64,000 bases of DNA, taken from contig NZ_JAJSON010000016.1 in the NCBI RefSeq assembly GCF_022410465.1, positions 62,001 to 126,000 of the forward strand, written 5' to 3'. This document shows, piece after piece, positions 54,242 through 63,045 of the stretch. Under the pieces are notes generated by a model. The model was not told the DNA's origin. It saw only the letters and a list, made by a program, of their open reading frames with translations, and searched no databases. A program made the translations under genes and the position numbers. Numbering within the stretch: position 1 is the stretch's first letter; every line of letters starts with the position of its first letter. The stretch comes from Christiangramia crocea (GTDB lineage Bacteria > Bacteroidota > Bacteroidia > Flavobacteriales > Flavobacteriaceae).

Positions 54242-55630
54242 TTAATCTCCAATTACCCTAACATTATCCAGATCGTAAGTCGTGGTTTTATCTGGTGCCG
54301 ATCCCAGGTATCTGAACCCAATCCAGACTTTCCCATCGAGACAGGAAATATCGATTTTAGATTTTGTGAAAATCCTGGAATTACTGCCGGAGGGTCCAAG
54401 AGGTATATGGGCATCTAACGATGTCCATTCAGTTGTTCGCGGATCTCCGGTGAAATCATCGCTTATGAAAACCTCCATTATAAGGCCTTTATCAAAAGAG
54501 GATAGAATATCAAAGCTCAGGACTTCATTTATGGAATTATCCAGGTTTATCACTGGGGTCACCAGCCAGGCTTCCAAAGGACTTTCCAAGGTATTGTAGG
54601 CCGATATTCTCAAAAGCCTGTTGCCACTTGAAAGCGTTGGTTTGAATTTCACTTCTCCTCCACTTACATTTAAATTGGTCCAGCGCCTGGAAGTAAGTAT
54701 CGTACTGGAAGTCACTCCTTCAAAATTCTCTTCAAATAATATCTTTGAACCTTCATTTATATTTTCTCCACACTCCAGATAGGCTGGATCACATCGGGAA
54801 TCGTTCATATTCAATTTATCTGGAGAATTGACCACGATTACATAATGCTCATCATAAAAATCCCTGGTTAAAATTCCTTCCACACTACCGGATCCTTCCG
54901 GAATCAAAAGCGATTTAAAATTTGAAAAAGTACTGGTGCTAAGCAGAACAGTTTCGCCAGTCTCGCAACTTTCCAACTGACGTTCCCCATCATATTGATC
55001 GGCCGGGTTTGATGCAAATGAATAAATATGGTCTTCCTTTACCAGATTCCTGTCAAACTGAACATTTTCAAGCCTTACATACAGGTTCTTCATTTCAGCA
55101 GAAAAATCAGAAATTTTAATACTCATAGGAATAACTTCTGCTGTTTGCCCCGTTCTTATCACATGGTCATCGATCATGGAATTCGGAATTGGGACCACAT
55201 CTCCCCTGTTCTGAATTCCTAATTGCAAAACCCCGTTGTTATACCACAGACTGAGGCCGTCTAGTTTTACATAGATCTTTCTCCCAAAATTGAAGGTTTC
55301 AAAGAGTGAATTATGATCAAGCAGAAGATGAATTCCGGAAGTAGGATTCGAAGGTTTGTCCTGAATGATCAATTCTTTATAGAAATTCCCACCAGCATCA
55401 TCAGAGATCACATAGCCCATTAACCACGTATTCGTTTCCTGAAAAGTATATATCTGTCCCGTGGTAAAGTTATAATTACCCTTTACAGCCTCTATACTAG
55501 TAGTGAGGTTCCCTTCAATTTCCACTTCAGTAGCATCCATCGGAGGGAGTTCAAAATCATCGGTCGTTACACAGCTATTGCCCGTTAATAAAATCAATAA
55601 GATTCCTGTTTTTAAAATCTTCATATTCAT
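54242..55630 (-). CDS. DUF5689 surface lipoprotein with choice-of-anchor-J-like C-terminal domain
   Basis: 462 residues. The leader ends at Cys20 (LTGNSC); five residues on, Asp-Asp-Phe-Glu resembles the lipoprotein surface-export signal of flavobacteria. Residues about 35-260 are DUF5689: GYVISDDAGGNFYKELIIQD and GRKIYVKLDGLSLWYNNGVLQL have the pattern of the OB-fold seen in extracellular nucleases. Residues about 295-462 form a jelly-roll-like domain (LFEENFEG, LVTPVINLD, YDLDNVRVIGD). The gene is 5 bases after the TonB receptor, so the pair is like a SusC/SusD couple in layout. Ligand unknown. Confidence 0.82.
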   Translation of the reverse strand: MNMKILKTGILLILLTGNSCVTTDDFELPPMDATEVEIEGNLTTSIEAVKGNYNFTTGQIYTFQETNTWLMGYVISDDAGGNFYKELIIQDKPSNPTSGIHLLLDHNSLFETFNFGRKIYVKLDGLSLWYNNGVLQLGIQNRGDVVPIPNSMIDDHVIRTGQTAEVIPMSIKISDFSAEMKNLYVRLENVQFDRNLVKEDHIYSFASNPADQYDGERQLESCETGETVLLSTSTFSNFKSLLIPEGSGSVEGILTRDFYDEHYVIVVNSPDKLNMNDSRCDPAYLECGENINEGSKILFEENFEGVTSSTILTSRRWTNLNVSGGEVKFKPTLSSGNRLLRISAYNTLESPLEAWLVTPVINLDNSINEVLSFDILSSFDKGLIMEVFISDDFTGDPRTTEWTSLDAHIPLGPSGSNSRIFTKSKIDISCLDGKVWIGFRYLGSAPDKTTTYDLDNVRVIGD

Positions 55631-55635
55631 ACGGC

Positions 55636-58461
55636 TTAAAATCTTAAATAAACATTTGCAAAAAAGGTTGTCCCCTGCCCATACCAGTATTTTGGGGCGA
55701 AAAGTGGCATTTCTCTATACATATCTTCTTTTAAACTCCGGTAATTTGCATTTCTCCCCTGTTCATACCCCCCACTTTTATATACCACGTTGAAAATATT
55801 ATTGAGACTTATAAAAGTGCCGAGATATTTATCCTTCAGGCGCCAGGACTTTCCTCCTACCGCATTCAAAAGAAAGTAATCGTTAAATTTTTCCTGTTTG
55901 AGGAGTTTGGAAGCGGTCTCCGCATCATATTCAATCAAAGGCAAACCATCATAATCCTTTTGAAAATTAGTGGTTCGGGTTAACGGATTTATATCGATAA
56001 ATGCATTCGAAAAATAATTGAATGTGGTCCCGAACCACCAGAAATCAGGATCGCGATACTCAAAACCTAATTGTGCCGCGGTCTGTGGTCCGCCTGGCAA
56101 GTGATAATTCCTCAAATATGCTTTACCATAATCAAGTGTAGCATCGAAACTTGCAGAGCTTAAGGACAGATTTGGGTTATTAGTATAAATATATTCGCCT
56201 AAAGCCAGAGCAGATTTTACTTTGATAGTGGAAGTAAGTTGGGATTCGGCACCAACTTCTATCCCATAATAATGTTTGTTCATGCCGCTCAATACCTCCT
56301 GAACAAAAGCAGTTGTATTCTCTCGCTCCAGTCCAGAGAGCCCATCGGCATAGTAATAGGAAACTTCGGTGACACCTGATATTTCAGTAAAATAGCCGGT
56401 GAATCTGAAATTGAGAAACGAAGAACGATAACGATATGAAATATCCCCTGTTTTAATTTTCTCTTCCTCAAGACCTGGGACTAATAGATTGTTCTGTCTT
56501 GGATTGACAAAAGCATTTCTGTAACCGGGAGCCTTGTTAAAATACCCGGTATTTAATTCAATATTCTGTCTTCCGGAAATTTTATAAACCGCTCCTGATT
56601 TAACTCCAAAATTGAAAAATTCGGCAACTTCACTTTTATCCAGAGAATTGCCTGGAAAAATACCATTCTGATAGTTCCCATTTCTCTGATAGCTAACAGA
56701 TCCAAAATCTCCGGCCAGGTAAGTTTCCCATTTACGACAGGTCCATTGTATTTGGCTGAATAATTCTGCTTCCTCAGCTGAGACATCATAGTCGTATTTA
56801 TAATGTTCGTTTTCAGCAACGATTCGGTTGAGATGCTGAAGATCACTTTGAGCAGCCAGGCCGGATATCTCCCCAATTTCATCCTGCACAAAAATGTCTA
56901 TATCCAGAAATCGATTCCCACCTAAAAGGTCTTTGATTCGTGCATAATTGTGACTTTCTAAACGACCATATCTAATTGAAGCGTTCAACTTGAGGTTATT
57001 GTTAAGCTGAATGCCCAGGATAGAATTAGCAGAAAACCGTGAATCCTGATTCACGTCTTCCGAGAGTGCATAGACAGTATTACGCCCATTTTCAACAGCA
57101 GTTAGATTGGCTGAATACAAAGAAGTCCAGTCCAGTTGTCCATTGCCTTTTATTTCATTTTGTGCGCGATAGGCTGCTTCAAAATTCTGGTTGTCCTCAA
57201 ATCTTAAAAAGTAAGAAGGCAATTTCTGATAATAGACAGGATCGGGATTTGCCCCTCCCCCATAAAAAGATGTTTGATCATTCGTAGTATTCAGGGTGGT
57301 CCCACCGAAATCTATCCTGGAATTCGCTGTCTCTCCAAATTGGTAGGAAATATTAGTGTTAATAGACGCTTTATCTGACATTTTCCAGAAATGATTAAGC
57401 ATCAGGATAGGTTCTTTGGTTTCCCGAATCCGGGAATTCCTTATTTCTCCATTCTGATATCCCCAGTAGGGATTATAAGTTCTACCCTTAAGTTCAAAAA
57501 CCTCTTTAGTAATTGCCGCTGAACGTCCCCTGATATTAGGAGTATAGATCCCACTAAAATTAAGAGAATGATCTTCATTCAGTTTCTTTTCTGCAGAAAT
57601 GAAAAAGGAATTTGCATCATAGACCGTTCCGTCCATGTAGCCATCTTTTGCAAACCTACGACCAAGAGAAATAGCATAATACCAGCCATTCTTCTCTTCT
57701 CCTGAGGCATAGGTAGCCATGAACCTTCCGGTGTAACTTCTATTAGAACCTGCAAAGGAAAGCCGGCCTCCCTTTTGATATTTTGAAGCTCTCATGATAA
57801 TATTCGTGGTACCTCCTAGCCCTCCGAACTGGTAATCATTAGCTGAAATCCCGTTTGTAAAAACCTGGTTCCGCTGCATGTCATTGAGTCCGCCCCAATT
57901 GCTCCACTGGGGCCTCCCATCATAGAATTTGTTCATTTCTAATCCGTTGATAAGAATCCTGCCATATTCGGAACCCAAACCGCGAGGTCGGAAAAAGGTC
58001 TGGCTAAAATCGAAGGCGGCCGCATTCAGAAAAACATCCCGGCTGGATTGCAGTATGCCCGAGATATTATCAAACTCACTTTCATCCGAAAGCAATTCGG
58101 CCTCTGTTAGGCTAATGGTCGCCTGCTGATTCTGCTCAAAAGCAGGATCTGGCTGGAGCAGGATGGTACCGAGTTCCTTTCCAGAAGATTGGATATCTAC
58201 CGGAATACGCTTGAGCAGATATCCCAATTTGTCTATTCTCAAAATATATTCACCAGGCACAATACCGCTTAGGTCCAGCTGGAATTCACCATCGGAATCA
58301 GAAAATACATTCGTAAAATAACTTTCGATAGAAACTTTTACCTGTGGTAAGGGCACTTCGGTAAAGGCATCTGCAAATCTACCTGAGATGGTAATTTGCT
58401 GGGCATTCATGTTCATGCAAATGAGCATGGCCATAACTGCCGGAATAACCTTTATGTTCAT
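55636..58461 (-). CDS. TonB-dependent receptor with carboxypeptidase-like N-terminal domain
   Basis: 941 residues. Signal peptide (about 1-20), a CarboxypepD-reg-like domain (22-110, GEFQLDLSGIVPGEYIL), plug domain (FFRPRGLGSEYGRILINGLEM to GGTTNIIMRAS) and a 22-strand barrel ending in the aromatic residue Phe941. It is not a classical SusC since it lacks the long SusC signature, but its partner is a surface lipoprotein encoded just downstream. Energised import across the outer membrane through TonB. A divergent exported nuclease gene begins 96 bases away, which suggests a common substrate. Confidence 0.9.
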   Translation of the reverse strand: MNIKVIPAVMAMLICMNMNAQQITISGRFADAFTEVPLPQVKVSIESYFTNVFSDSDGEFQLDLSGIVPGEYILRIDKLGYLLKRIPVDIQSSGKELGTILLQPDPAFEQNQQATISLTEAELLSDESEFDNISGILQSSRDVFLNAAAFDFSQTFFRPRGLGSEYGRILINGLEMNKFYDGRPQWSNWGGLNDMQRNQVFTNGISANDYQFGGLGGTTNIIMRASKYQKGGRLSFAGSNRSYTGRFMATYASGEEKNGWYYAISLGRRFAKDGYMDGTVYDANSFFISAEKKLNEDHSLNFSGIYTPNIRGRSAAITKEVFELKGRTYNPYWGYQNGEIRNSRIRETKEPILMLNHFWKMSDKASINTNISYQFGETANSRIDFGGTTLNTTNDQTSFYGGGANPDPVYYQKLPSYFLRFEDNQNFEAAYRAQNEIKGNGQLDWTSLYSANLTAVENGRNTVYALSEDVNQDSRFSANSILGIQLNNNLKLNASIRYGRLESHNYARIKDLLGGNRFLDIDIFVQDEIGEISGLAAQSDLQHLNRIVAENEHYKYDYDVSAEEAELFSQIQWTCRKWETYLAGDFGSVSYQRNGNYQNGIFPGNSLDKSEVAEFFNFGVKSGAVYKISGRQNIELNTGYFNKAPGYRNAFVNPRQNNLLVPGLEEEKIKTGDISYRYRSSFLNFRFTGYFTEISGVTEVSYYYADGLSGLERENTTAFVQEVLSGMNKHYYGIEVGAESQLTSTIKVKSALALGEYIYTNNPNLSLSSASFDATLDYGKAYLRNYHLPGGPQTAAQLGFEYRDPDFWWFGTTFNYFSNAFIDINPLTRTTNFQKDYDGLPLIEYDAETASKLLKQEKFNDYFLLNAVGGKSWRLKDKYLGTFISLNNIFNVVYKSGGYEQGRNANYRSLKEDMYREMPLFAPKYWYGQGTTFFANVYLRF

Positions 58462-58476
58462 TTAATCGCCCCAAAA

Positions 58477-58484
58477 TAATTTTG
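58477..58484 (+). promoter_or_regulatory. -7 box for the exported nuclease gene
   Basis: TAATTTTG fits TAnnTTTG and lies 73 bases before the TTG start at 58558. The spacer is shared with the divergent TonB receptor gene, which has no clear box of its own. Confidence 0.4.
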
Positions 58485-58557
58485 ATAAAATTTAAGCGAG
58501 TAAATATATAATAAACTTATTTTCAGTACTTTAAAAAACTAATAAATTTTTAAAAAT

Positions 58558-59634
58558 TTGAAGAAATACCTGATCTGTCTATTCAGAAATCTTATTATTC
58601 TGAGTATTCATCTGACCTTTTTTAGTCTTTCCGCTCAGGAAAAAAAAGATTACCTAATAAGTACCATTGCATTTTATAATGTAGAAAACCTCTTTGACAC
58701 TGAAGACAATCCCGAAACTTTTGATGATGACCGAACAGCATCGGGAAAAGATGCCTGGACAGAAGAGAAATATCAAAAGAAAATTGAAAATATAAGTCGG
58801 GTCCTTTCCGAAATTGGTACCGATGTAAATCCAGAACCTCCAGCGATCCTTGGGGTGTGTGAAATAGAAAACAGAAAGGTACTGGAAGACCTTATCATCC
58901 ATCCTAATTTGCGTAAATATAATTACGGAATAATTCATTTTGATTCACAGGACGAAAGAGGCGTTGATGTAGCTCTTTTGTACAGAAAACAACACTTTAC
59001 ACCTCTGGACTCTAAAACCCGGAGACTGGTCATCTATGAGGCTGACAACCCCACTAAAAGGGATTATACCCGGGATCAACTGGTGGTGAGCGGACTTTTG
59101 AATAAGGAAGAGGTAAATTTTATAGTAAATCACTGGCCTTCCCGTGGCGGTGGAGAGAAAAGAAGTGCCTATAAAAGAGAAAAAGCGGCATCCTTAAATA
59201 AAAGGATAATAGACTCACTGGTGAAGATAAATCCTGATGCCAGAATAATTAGCATGGGAGATTTTAATGATGATCCCACTAATAAGAGTTTTAAAAAGAT
59301 CTTGAAAACCGAGGCTGGCAGGAACAGGCTTTCAGAAAATTCTCTGTATAATCCAATGGAAAATATGCTGAAAGAAGGCAAGGGAAGCCTGGCTTATCGC
59401 GACTCATGGAATCTTTTTGACCAGATCTTTATGACCTCAAATCTCCTGAATAAGAAAAGTCAGGGGTTTGAATTTTACAAGGCTGGAATTTTCAACAAGC
59501 CTTATCTGATCACTCAAAATGGTCAATTTAAAGACTATCCTTTCAGGACCTATGGATACTCGGGTTATGAAGGCGGGTATAGCGATCATTTCCCGGTTTA
59601 TATTTATTTGATAAGACAGATAAATTCAAATTAA
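58558..59634 (+). CDS. Exported endonuclease/exonuclease/phosphatase-family protein
   Basis: 358 residues starting at TTG (no nearby ATG); a hydrophobic signal peptide ends near LSAQ (about 27). All main EEP motifs are present: FYNVENLFD, GVCEIENRKVLEDL with the metal-binding Glu, NHWPSRGGGEKRSAYKR, GDFNDDPTN and the terminal YSDHFPV. The enzyme should hydrolyse phosphodiester bonds (DNA, RNA, or another phosphoester) outside the cytoplasm. No type 9 secretion C-terminal domain. Divergent from the TonB receptor and DUF5689 pair. Confidence 0.87.
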   Translation: MKKYLICLFRNLIILSIHLTFFSLSAQEKKDYLISTIAFYNVENLFDTEDNPETFDDDRTASGKDAWTEEKYQKKIENISRVLSEIGTDVNPEPPAILGVCEIENRKVLEDLIIHPNLRKYNYGIIHFDSQDERGVDVALLYRKQHFTPLDSKTRRLVIYEADNPTKRDYTRDQLVVSGLLNKEEVNFIVNHWPSRGGGEKRSAYKREKAASLNKRIIDSLVKINPDARIISMGDFNDDPTNKSFKKILKTEAGRNRLSENSLYNPMENMLKEGKGSLAYRDSWNLFDQIFMTSNLLNKKSQGFEFYKAGIFNKPYLITQNGQFKDYPFRTYGYSGYEGGYSDHFPVYIYLIRQINSN

Positions 59635-59754: not shown

Positions 59755-60192
59755 CTAAAACCATGTAGCCCAGGGAATCCGGGAAAGCATTACTACAAAT
59801 GCAAGACCATAAAATATTGCAAGTTTCTTAAACTTAGGTCCTGATGTAAGTTTCTTTTTATGTTGAGAGTACCCTATGGTAACCAGGACTATCGCAATGA
59901 TCATCATCAACGGATGCTCTACATTATAAAGTCTAAGCGTAGAATCTGCCATTACTCCCCCCATTCCTTCTTCGGCCCACATCTTAAAATAAGGTGTGGT
60001 AAAGTACAGGATAAGACCTATCAGTAACTGAATATGAGAAACAATAAGGGTAAACAGGGCGATCCTGAAATTGGTAGCGGAATACTCCTTATTCGCGGCA
60101 AAGCCAATGATTCCGTTAAAACTTGCAATAAGTAACATAAAAAGCACCAGATATGCCCAATATGAATGAATAAACTGAATGGTTTCGTACAT
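59755..60192 (-). CDS. Small membrane protein, cytochrome b-like (four helices)
   Basis: 145 residues with four membrane segments (about 12-33, 43-64, 90-111, 122-141). Conserved histidines lie in FIHSYWAYL, VSHIQLLIG and VEHPLMMIIA, suited to haem binding, which is why relatives are called cytochrome b-like. The evidence for haem is weak. It ends 65 bases before a palindrome and follows the TonB receptor on the same strand but is separated by a strong terminator. Function unknown. Confidence 0.68.
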   Translation of the reverse strand: MYETIQFIHSYWAYLVLFMLLIASFNGIIGFAANKEYSATNFRIALFTLIVSHIQLLIGLILYFTTPYFKMWAEEGMGGVMADSTLRLYNVEHPLMMIIAIVLVTIGYSQHKKKLTSGPKFKKLAIFYGLAFVVMLSRIPWATWF

Positions 60193-60282: not shown

Positions 60283-63045
60283 TTAGAATCTAAAAGCTAC
60301 ACTTGCGTTCCAGGTTCTTCCCCACCCGAAGAAAACATTATTTCTGGTGTTCACACCATTCCATGTTTCAGCGCCAGGACCTGCTAACCTGTTAGTTAGC
60401 GACTCAGAAATGTAGATATTATCCGTAACATTATTAACGTTCACTCTAAAGGTGAGTCTGTTTTCTCCAAGATCAAGACCATAAGATGCTCCGAGATCCA
60501 GAAGGCCATACGATGGCAATTCAAACACCTCAAAATCAGCGTCTTCTGCATCAGTAGCATCATAAGAAGCATATAAATTATCAGCATAACGGTAAGTGGC
60601 ATCTACGCTAAGATTATCTATAATCTGGTAGTCTGCACCTAAACTAGCAGTAAACTGGGCGGCATTTCCAACTTTTACTCCATCCAGATTTAGAACGGCA
60701 TCCTCTGCACCTGGAATTGGGTTTTGGTTTTCATCAAGATATGAAACATTTACATCATCTTTATATTCCCAGTTACCAATAGAAAGCATTCCATTCCACC
60801 TAAATTTATTTCCTACTCTACCATATAAATCAAATTCAATACCTGTATGTACCTGTGTAACACCTAAAATATTAGCCACACCTCTGATTTCATCATCAGT
60901 ATCTTCGAAGAAAGTAGCCGAGGTAGTTTCAAATCTATCGGCCCAGGAAGTCCTATAAAGATTCACGTTAGCATTGAAAAATTGAGATCGGAAGCCATAG
61001 CCCAATTCTATTCCAAATACTTGTTCGTTTGTTAAATTTGGATTCTTCTCATTTGTATCATTTAGGTAAACAGCGTCAAAAAGTGGTTGTTTAGAATAAT
61101 AACCAATATTACCAAAAACATTATGCTGTTCGTTAATGTTAAAATTTAACCCACCTTTTATATTTCCACCTAATATATTTTCCCAATCTGTTTCCTCGTT
61201 ATTCTCATCGTATAAGAAATAATCTTTTCTCTTAAATCCTTGATTAGAAATCGCTCCCTGAACAAAAGCGGAAATTTGATCACCCACATATTCTAACTGA
61301 GCGAATGCACCTTGCCAGTTTACATAACCTTCACTGTAATAATCTATCTTTTCCTCATCATCGATACTCTTAAAAACATTCAAAGTATTATCAATGGTAG
61401 GCTCGTAAGTTTCAGAAAGGAATCTGTAAGGGTTTGTCTTATCGTTATTATCTACATAAATATCACCCCCCATTAAATCAACCATTCTTCTATAATGGAA
61501 ACCTGTATAAGATCTTAAGTCAACTCCAAAATCAAGAGTAAGCTGATCATTTATTTCCTTTTGATAATTAGAAATCAGTCCAAACCAGTTATGGGAATTA
61601 ATTGAAGACCTTCTGGTGATACCATTTTCAGGTCCATATATATGGCCTGCATCATTTACAAAATCAGATGGAGTTTCGTTTCCGTTTACAAAAGCACCTT
61701 GGTAGGCATTACCTCCACCGGTATATCCTTCTCTTGAACCACCAAAATCCGGAACATTCTGACCTGAGTTATAGGCAAAAATGTCATCAATTCTTAATAA
61801 TCCATCATCTGTCTTTGGAAGGGAATAATACCTATCCCCATTAATTCTTCCTATAGGACCTATGGAACCCCCACGCCCAAAAGATGCGTAAGCACTTGTA
61901 GTAAGTTTGGAGTCTGTATTTATATCCCAATCCCAACTTAGGGAAGCCACTGGTTTATGATAGAAGTTACCTGCAAATGTAAATTCCTTTCCATTTCTAT
62001 ATCCGAATTCCGGATTATACTTTTCATTCGGCTCACCATTTTCACCGTATTCCAAATAACTACCTAAACTTGTGAAAAAACTTCTTTGGTTATGTTGTTG
62101 TGGTGCACCGGTTAAAATAAAATTGAAGTCATGGTCATCATTAAGTCTGTAACCTGCACCAATAAAATAATTATAACCTTCAAACTCCGTCCCATTCACA
62201 TAACCGTCTCCGGAAGTTCTGCTTAAAAGAAAAGAACCAGACCAGCCATTATCATTAAGACCGGTATTATAAGAAGCGATCGTCTTAAGATAGCTATCAT
62301 TACCTACACTAGCCTTTACAAAACCACCTTCTTTTCTTTCGGCAGATCTTGTTACAACATTTATAGTACCACCTACAGAAGATACGGCAAGTTTAGAAGA
62401 ACCAAGTCCTCGCTGTACCTGAATAGCAGAAGCCACATCACTTAGTCCAGCCCAGTTACTCCAATAAACCTGACCGTTCTCCATATCATTTACAGGAATA
62501 CCGTTAATCATCACCGCAGAGTTTTGAGTATCAAAACCACGAATAGTGATACGTGAATCTCCAAATCCACCTCCTTGCTTGGTAGCATAGATAGAAGGAG
62601 TAGTACTCAGGATTTCCGGAAATTCCTGGTTCCCCAGTTTTTCCTCGATTTCCTGAGAACGAATAGTTGAAACAGCAACTGGAGTCTGTCGATCTTTAGC
62701 TAAGTCAACCACCCCGGTAATCACTACTTCAGATAATGCATTCGCATCAGCACTCAATACGATCTGTCCAAGATCCTGAGTCTCCCCGTTAGTTACGTTG
62801 AAAGATACCGTTTTTGTTTCGTAGCCTACAAAACTGATACGAATCCTTCCAGATGCATCTTCAACATCAATGCTAAAGTTTCCATCAAAGTCCGTCATTG
62901 TACCTTGTTGGGTTCCTACCACCATAACGTTCGCGCCAGGCAGAGGTCCATCCATTTCAGAATCTATTACCGTACCGGTAATAATCCCTTGAGCAAAAAT
63001 GGTAGCGGATGTTAAAAACATCGCTAACAGTAATAATTTCCTCAT
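60283..63045 (-). CDS. TonB-dependent receptor, orphan
   Basis: 920 residues. Signal peptide (about 1-18), CarboxypepD-reg-like domain (20-105, GTVIDSEMDGPLPGANVMV and DFDGNFSIDV), plug (TPVAVSTIRSQEIEEKLG, ITIRGFDTQNSAVMINGIP, GGTINVVTRS) and barrel ending in Phe920. No SusD-like or lipoprotein gene is next to it, so the ligand cannot be guessed; the plug resembles those of siderophore or vitamin receptors as much as carbohydrate ones. Separate transcript with its own terminator; a perfect 9-bp inverted repeat lies upstream of its -7 box. Confidence 0.92.
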   Translation of the reverse strand: MRKLLLLAMFLTSATIFAQGIITGTVIDSEMDGPLPGANVMVVGTQQGTMTDFDGNFSIDVEDASGRIRISFVGYETKTVSFNVTNGETQDLGQIVLSADANALSEVVITGVVDLAKDRQTPVAVSTIRSQEIEEKLGNQEFPEILSTTPSIYATKQGGGFGDSRITIRGFDTQNSAVMINGIPVNDMENGQVYWSNWAGLSDVASAIQVQRGLGSSKLAVSSVGGTINVVTRSAERKEGGFVKASVGNDSYLKTIASYNTGLNDNGWSGSFLLSRTSGDGYVNGTEFEGYNYFIGAGYRLNDDHDFNFILTGAPQQHNQRSFFTSLGSYLEYGENGEPNEKYNPEFGYRNGKEFTFAGNFYHKPVASLSWDWDINTDSKLTTSAYASFGRGGSIGPIGRINGDRYYSLPKTDDGLLRIDDIFAYNSGQNVPDFGGSREGYTGGGNAYQGAFVNGNETPSDFVNDAGHIYGPENGITRRSSINSHNWFGLISNYQKEINDQLTLDFGVDLRSYTGFHYRRMVDLMGGDIYVDNNDKTNPYRFLSETYEPTIDNTLNVFKSIDDEEKIDYYSEGYVNWQGAFAQLEYVGDQISAFVQGAISNQGFKRKDYFLYDENNEETDWENILGGNIKGGLNFNINEQHNVFGNIGYYSKQPLFDAVYLNDTNEKNPNLTNEQVFGIELGYGFRSQFFNANVNLYRTSWADRFETTSATFFEDTDDEIRGVANILGVTQVHTGIEFDLYGRVGNKFRWNGMLSIGNWEYKDDVNVSYLDENQNPIPGAEDAVLNLDGVKVGNAAQFTASLGADYQIIDNLSVDATYRYADNLYASYDATDAEDADFEVFELPSYGLLDLGASYGLDLGENRLTFRVNVNNVTDNIYISESLTNRLAGPGAETWNGVNTRNNVFFGWGRTWNASVAFRF

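What the first reader, a model, noticed from the sequence alone, without database searches (positions are those of the whole stretch)
54242..59634. Putative nucleic-acid (or phosphodiester) acquisition locus: surface lipoprotein + TonB receptor + exported EEP nuclease
Seen: a lipoprotein with DUF5689 (OB-fold-like pattern) and a surface-export-like DDFE motif, 5 bases after a TonB receptor gene; 96 bases away, divergent, an exported enzyme with intact endonuclease/exonuclease/phosphatase motifs. Known: SusCD-like systems pair a TonB receptor with a surface lipoprotein, and OB-folds of this pattern occur in extracellular nucleases. Inferred: the lipoprotein grips polymeric DNA/RNA at the surface, the receptor imports fragments and the nuclease degrades them in the periplasm to feed phosphate or nucleosides.
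Basis: partly seen in the sequence, partly recalled or inferred. Interest (0 to 1): 0.7.

Follow-up and report, generated by a model that had tools for sequence, protein, structure and literature searches.

The report
Bacteroidota DNA-import locus with periplasmic nuclease
Three neighbouring genes, for a surface protein, an outer-membrane gate and an exported enzyme of a DNA-cutting superfamily, form a gene set shared by many families of one bacterial class that most likely brings nucleic acids into the cell; relatives of two of the genes are needed for natural transformation in one species.

Summary
Window 54242-59634 carries a DUF5689 plus choice-of-anchor J lipoprotein, 5 bases behind a TonB-dependent receptor, and 96 bases further a divergent exported EEP (PF19580) enzyme with its motifs intact. 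It is a conserved unit: a divergent EEP lies within 6 kb in 46 of 47 family-f5 and 28 of 48 family-f1 genomes counted, and an EEP adjoins the pair in 28 of 39 loci examined from other orders. All 78 receptors scored as DUF5689-paired share one clade. Some loci also carry Endonuclease_NS, Endonuclease I, PLD, S1/P1 nuclease or 5'-nucleotidase genes, and DUF5689 is fused to nuclease domains in 6 of 10 other proteins scanned. The same arrangement in Riemerella anatipestifer is essential for natural transformation (PMC8459023). Best reading: an outer-membrane nucleic-acid importer with a periplasmic nuclease, for feeding, transformation or both. New here, within the library searched: the nuclease partner and the class-wide spread.

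The parts
54242..55630 (-). lipoprotein, DUF5689 + choice-of-anchor J; proposed surface nucleic-acid receptor
54821..55504 (-). DUF5689 domain (residues 43-270)
   Evidence: E 3.3e-53
54254..54736 (-). choice-of-anchor J domain (residues 299-459)
   Evidence: NF038128, 62.1 bits over cut-off 30
55636..58461 (-). TonB-dependent receptor, 941 aa, of the DUF5689-paired clade; proposed outer-membrane channel
58462..58557 (.). 96-base divergent intergenic stretch between receptor and nuclease genes
   Evidence: divergent spacing in relatives
58558..59634 (+). exported EEP-superfamily (PF19580) enzyme, proposed periplasmic nuclease

Best explanation
The three genes are a nucleic-acid import unit of the outer membrane. 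The lipoprotein, anchored on the outer face, binds DNA (or RNA) with its DUF5689 domain and hands it to the TonB-dependent receptor, which draws it into the periplasm. The exported EEP enzyme cuts it there. Fragments feed phosphate and nucleoside uptake, and a strand can be passed to ComEC for transformation. Shown: the genes, their class-wide co-inheritance, the nuclease context and (published, in a relative) that the receptor-lipoprotein pair is essential for transformation. Inferred: surface position, binding, direct transport through the receptor, the substrate of the EEP enzyme, and which use dominates in this organism (my estimate: feeding 0.6, transformation 0.5, not exclusive).
For: Neighbourhood: divergent EEP within 6 kb of DUF5689 in 46 of 47 f5 and 20 of 48 f1 genomes by coordinates, 28 of 48 in f1 after follow-up; window and 8 of 8 named congeners; 28 of 39 examined loci of other orders, 13 families. 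Receptors: 78 of 78 scored as paired, plus 4 in which DUF5689 also follows by coordinates, in one clade (FastTree local support 0.96), 10 others outside. EEP: 53 of 53 adjacent EEPs have a hydrophobic N-terminus by a crude hydropathy test; short paralogues without one split off at a fork of support 100/97. Nucleic-acid enzymes within about 6 kb of the pair: Endonuclease_NS in L157, L166, L167, L184, L194, and PLD in L171, L181; Endonuclease_1 in L004, L009; S1/P1 nuclease and 5'-nucleotidase parts in L132. DUF5689 with EEP (3) or PLD (3) domains in 6 of 10 proteins away from the pair with a Pfam DUF5689 match. Genetics: R. anatipestifer receptor and DUF5689-gene deletions gave transformation below detection (PMC8459023, passages); tonBA and tonBB mutants are reduced (PMC8383284, passages).
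Against: 17 of 24 counted genomes of genus g33 lack a nearby EEP (15 with none in the fetched stretch, G182 and G220 with one 48-54 kb away), so the nuclease is not obligatory. G144 has the EEP but no DUF5689 match. Four of the 10 DUF5689 proteins away from the pair have no nuclease domain (L139, L149, L147, L148), and L147 follows a multicopper oxidase. In the Riemerella paper the upstream gene RA0C_RS04910 appears once, with unchanged transcription, not as a needed gene. The authors of PMC8383284 explain the tonBB effect by iron. Lowered phosphate reduced transformation in R. anatipestifer but raised it in R. columbina. ComEC itself is reported to have nuclease activity (PMC8579336, PMC12455585, seen as listing and abstract start), so no extra nuclease may be needed for transformation. 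The lipoprotein model failed. M949_1556, whose name the lipoprotein family bears, was reported as associated with LPS synthesis (PMC4976936, passages). I know of no binding, transport or nuclease assay of these proteins.
Confidence: 0.72

Rival explanations
1. The receptor-lipoprotein pair is a dedicated transformation DNA receptor and the EEP gene is a separate scavenger that merely stays next door.
For: Published essentiality of the pair for transformation (PMC8459023); EEP without the pair in G144 (L136); pair without an EEP in the fetched stretch in 15 g33 genomes; reported ComEC nuclease activity (listing).
Against: Divergent arrangement kept in many families; other nucleases in the neighbourhood elsewhere.
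Confidence: 0.14
2. A scavenger for another phosphodiester such as phospholipid head groups or teichoic-acid-like polymers, with the EEP enzyme as phosphodiesterase.
For: The EEP superfamily includes sphingomyelinases and inositol phosphatases (recalled); Flavobacterium has phosphate-induced TonB systems with phosphodiesterases (PMC8115612, passages).
Against: Endonuclease_NS, Endonuclease_1, S1/P1 and 5'-nucleotidase neighbours and nuclease fusions of DUF5689; no sphingomyelinase among the 50 listed Foldseek matches, though the model is only moderate and nocturnin, listed with NADPH bound, is among them.
Confidence: 0.07
3. A cell-surface or LPS-related lipoprotein system whose loss lowers transformation indirectly.
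For: M949_1556 is listed among genes associated with LPS synthesis in Riemerella (PMC4976936, passages).
Against: Nuclease context; no LPS gene among the neighbours that I annotated, but most neighbour clusters were not annotated.
Confidence: 0.07

Closest known systems
Riemerella anatipestifer RA0C_RS04915-RA0C_RS04920 transformation pair (PMC8459023, passages read)
   Same: receptor-like protein with carboxypeptidase-regulatory-like domain followed by a DUF5689 + DUF5017 (choice-of-anchor J) protein in one predicted operon; the paper already proposes dsDNA binding and outer-membrane passage
   Different: the passages read do not describe a neighbouring nuclease and call the strand-degrading protein unidentified (its figures are not held); they report the receptor homologue only in Flavobacteriaceae, whereas I find the receptor clade in many families of the class; transformation is untested in the window organism
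SusCD / PusCD uptake systems
   Same: TonB receptor plus lipoprotein beside degradative enzymes; may work like one
   Different: no SusD-type domain, no SusC model match
ExeM/NucH extracellular DNases and DUF5689-EEP or DUF5689-PLD fusion nucleases
   Same: DUF5689 and EEP domains occur fused in relatives
   Different: here the domains are on separate proteins; the window EEP scores 32.5 bits against a cut-off of 300 for NF033681

Membership tests
Riemerella-type transformation receptor/lipoprotein pair | receptor gene directly followed by DUF5689 + choice-of-anchor lipoprotein | tested here: met
Riemerella-type transformation receptor/lipoprotein pair | lipoprotein over the NF052645 (M949_1556) cut-off | tested here: not met
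   204.2 bits over positions 9-456/457, cut-off 475; L117 and L118 of unnamed f5 genomes reach 564.1 and 591.5 in the EEP-receptor-lipoprotein order. That M949_1556 is the same gene as RA0C_RS04920 is inferred
Riemerella-type transformation receptor/lipoprotein pair | required for natural transformation | not testable with these tools
   needs deletion strains; no sequence labelled R. anatipestifer was at hand for direct comparison
SusCD | SusD-type lipoprotein and SusC/RagA receptor | tested here: not met
   no SusD family hit and no TIGR04056 hit at E 0.001
Exo_endo_phos_3 (PF19580) EEP | family model and motif residues | tested here: met
   402.5 bits over cut-off 27; residues in 53 of 53 adjacent EEPs
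ExeM/NucH DNase | NF033681 over cut-off | tested here: not met
   32.5 of 300 bits
Surface-exported (LES) lipoprotein | cysteine followed by an acidic LES at the tested position | tested here: inconclusive
   CVTTDDFE, motif two residues later than +2 to +6; the paper found position critical in C. canimorsus
OB-fold nucleic-acid binder | OB fold in DUF5689 | tested here: inconclusive
   AlphaFold mean pLDDT 36.8; PDB profile search without credible hit; PF01336 in 3 of 63 domains, best E 0.023

The most novel reading that the evidence does not exclude
Bacteria of this class take DNA through a dedicated TonB-dependent receptor instead of a pilus and secretin, and the adjacent exported EEP enzyme is the periplasmic nuclease that processes it, so that eating DNA and natural transformation share one outer-membrane gate inherited across the class.
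Probability: 0.3. Interest if true: 0.86.

Novelty: new variant of a known kind. Interest (0 to 1): 0.64.

Why it matters
How DNA crosses the outer membrane of Bacteroidota is an open question: the Riemerella authors found no homologues of well-known uptake machinery for these genes and left the nuclease unidentified (PMC8459023). This work names a candidate nuclease, gives a receptor clade and a domain (DUF5689) as markers, and finds the set in many families of the class. That would bear on DNA turnover (Bacteroidota are proposed as important DNA degraders in marine sediments, PMC8289736, passages) and on gene exchange.

Tried and rejected
AlphaFold of the lipoprotein gave a useless model, so no fold search was run with it. 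A PDB profile search with 63 DUF5689 domains returned only chance-level hits, mostly proteasome subunits. Single-sequence PDB searches of EEP and receptor found nothing; the lipoprotein's one hit, 8jiy_A, lies in the C-terminal part. NCBIfam matches of the fusion nucleases did not reach the DUF5689 stretch, so they did not tie DUF5689 to the ExeM model. A SusCD filing was rejected on family models. RecA, ComF and TonB were not searched in the window genome. Literature: all 10 paper searches were used; DUF5689 occurs in one paper of that library, and no report of the EEP link was noticed; figures and supplements were not seen.

Rows dropped: one search used hand-transcribed, length-capped listings and left out weaker DUF5689 hits; 98 genomes were counted, and the receptor between the two genes was read only in fetched loci. 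Of 51 genomes of other orders with a DUF5689 match below 1e-30, I fetched 39, plus one weaker (L196, no receptor pair). Of the 20 loci, one (L155) is a paired locus, and I scanned the DUF5689 protein of 11 others with Pfam; in L142 that scan gave no DUF5689 match, and 8 were not scanned. L003's EEP (291 aa, shorter) was left out of alignment A2.

Full report
What is there. The receptor has a Plug domain and sub-threshold carboxypeptidase-regulatory-like matches but no SusC model match. The third gene encodes a PF19580 enzyme of the endonuclease/exonuclease/phosphatase superfamily with an apparent signal peptide. The window's genome has one PF18942 and one PF19580 match at E 0.001. Named relatives with 65-85 percent identical lipoproteins are Christiangramia/Gramella.

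Is it conserved? Order level: DUF5689 in 175 and PF19580 in 196 of 296 genomes. Taking the best strong DUF5689 hit in 98 genomes, a divergent PF19580 match lies within 6 kb upstream in 46 of 47 genomes of family f5, 20 of 48 of family f1 and 0 of 3 others. In 5 further f1 genomes (G114, G130, G172, G310, G315) a nearer second EEP had masked the divergent one (coordinates). Fetching the 18 g33 genomes without a listed EEP on that contig added 3 (L098, L103, L107), giving 28 of 48; the other 15 have none in the fetched stretch, nor do G182 and G220. Of 24 g33 genomes counted, 7 thus have it and 17 do not. The f5 exception ends at a contig edge (L135). EEP, receptor and lipoprotein were read in that order in the 8 f5 loci that I fetched with a complete region (L117-L124). 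Outside the order, of 39 examined loci with DUF5689 below 1e-30, 28 from 13 families have the EEP within 700 bases of a receptor with a DUF5689 gene near it: 25 divergent, 2 in the same direction upstream (L184, L194), and 1 just behind the DUF5689 gene (L167). The 11 others comprise a contig end (L163), an EEP 1.5-3 kb behind the DUF5689 gene (L181, L182), an EEP elsewhere in the stretch (L185, L186, L189) and no EEP found (L159, L160, L171, L172, L179). With one to three such enzymes per genome, chance adjacency would be well under one percent (my estimate).

Co-inheritance. In a FastTree tree of 92 receptors, 78 of 78 scored as DUF5689-paired fall in one clade (local support 0.96) with 4 that my gap rule missed but in which DUF5689 follows by coordinates. 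The 10 remaining receptors, including the window's neighbour at 60283-63045, fall outside; this outgroup is small and comes from the same loci. Identity of the window receptor to other paired ones is 29-84 percent, to the 10 outside 17-24 percent. In an EEP tree of 91 rows the fork between 8 rows (five short paralogues without a hydrophobic N-terminus and three f7 sequences with one) and the other 83 has support 100/97. The 83 include 7 rows scored non-adjacent. The adjacent rows as a group need 4 label changes, so adjacency was lost or gained a few times. All 53 adjacent EEPs have a hydrophobic N-terminus by a crude measure.

What the neighbourhood says about the cargo. Candidates were picked from local models and BLAST clusters and then checked with Pfam. 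Confirmed within about 6 kb of the pair: DNA/RNA non-specific endonucleases in L157, L166, L167, L184 and L194, and PLD-type proteins in L171 and L181; Endonuclease I in L004 and L009; T9SS-tailed EEP proteins in L180 and L188. By local model only: Endonuclease I in L006, L008, L161, L162 and PLD in L158, L165, L183. In L132 an S1/P1 nuclease and two 5'-nucleotidase-type proteins follow a receptor and two DUF5689 lipoproteins; similar pairs lie by L190 and L195 (local model; the L190 phosphoesterase part confirmed). Away from the pair, 10 scanned proteins have a Pfam DUF5689 match (one, L144, 0.3 bits under the cut-off): EEP domains in L137, L138 and L144, PLD domains in L140, L141 and L150, no nuclease domain in L139, L149, L147 and L148. 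DUF5689 therefore looks like an accessory domain often found with extracellular nucleases. Counter-examples: L147 follows a multicopper oxidase, and no receptor pair was found in L125, L126, L131, L133, L172 and L196.

Function in a relative. In R. anatipestifer, markerless deletions of RA0C_RS04915 (receptor-like) and RA0C_RS04920 (DUF5689 + DUF5017) gave transformation below detection; the authors propose DNA binding and outer-membrane passage by this pair and leave the nuclease unidentified (PMC8459023, passages). tonBA and tonBB deletions lowered transformation, which the authors explain for tonBB by iron (PMC8383284, passages). Direct sequence comparison was not possible. NF052645, named after a Riemerella locus tag, is exceeded by the lipoproteins of L117 and L118, which sit in the same gene order, and the window protein matches it end to end below its cut-off. 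R. columbina is competent while F. johnsoniae was not under the same conditions (PMC7965970, passages). The window genome has matches for ComEC, DprA, PF07075 (DUF1343 in the paper) and a double HHH_3 protein of about 290 residues. ComEC and DprA ring in 10 and 11 of 14 control genomes, E. coli among them, so these are consistent with competence, not evidence for it. ComEC nuclease activity is reported elsewhere (PMC8579336, PMC12455585, listing and abstract start), so the EEP enzyme need not be the strand-degrading step.

Structure. The EEP model (mean pLDDT 57.8, pTM 0.66) matches TDP2 best, then Bacteroides EEP proteins, with CNOT6L and nocturnin further down; query TM-scores are only 0.34-0.46, so this supports the superfamily, not a substrate. 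The lipoprotein model failed; the OB fold remains an inference from the conserved pattern and weak OB-family hits (3 of 63 domains).

Mechanism and verdict. I commit to nucleic-acid import with periplasmic cutting (0.72). Whether feeding or transformation is the main use here is open: the L132, L190 and L195 neighbourhoods favour feeding, the Riemerella genetics transformation, and one gate could serve both. The pair's role in transformation is published for one species; the nuclease partner, the nuclease-rich context and the class-wide receptor clade are, within the library searched, new.

Noticed in passing
59755-60192: A 145-aa protein without Pfam match, apparently membrane-spanning, recurs near the EEP gene in several f1 genomes (window, L002, L127, L128, L129, L134).
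   Followed up: no
60283-63045: A second TonB receptor outside the DUF5689-paired clade; in L004, L006, L008 and L009 an Endonuclease I-type protein (Pfam-checked in L004 and L009) occupies the comparable place.
   Followed up: partly
L155:2611-14835: EEP followed by two tandem copies of receptor plus a long DUF5689 protein with repeated DUF5689 domains.
   Followed up: no
L136:9661-10701: EEP in the syntenic place in a genome with no DUF5689 match (G144): the pair seems lost or never present.
   Followed up: partly
L140:2166-4454, L141:2154-4427, L151:2472-4589: In other families of the order a DUF5689 protein (PLD domains and T9SS tail confirmed in L140 and L141) directly follows an ORF whose end looks like a TonB receptor: a possible variant of the same theme.
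   Followed up: partly
L147:3315-4724: DUF5689 paralogue directly behind a multicopper oxidase gene, a different context.
   Followed up: no
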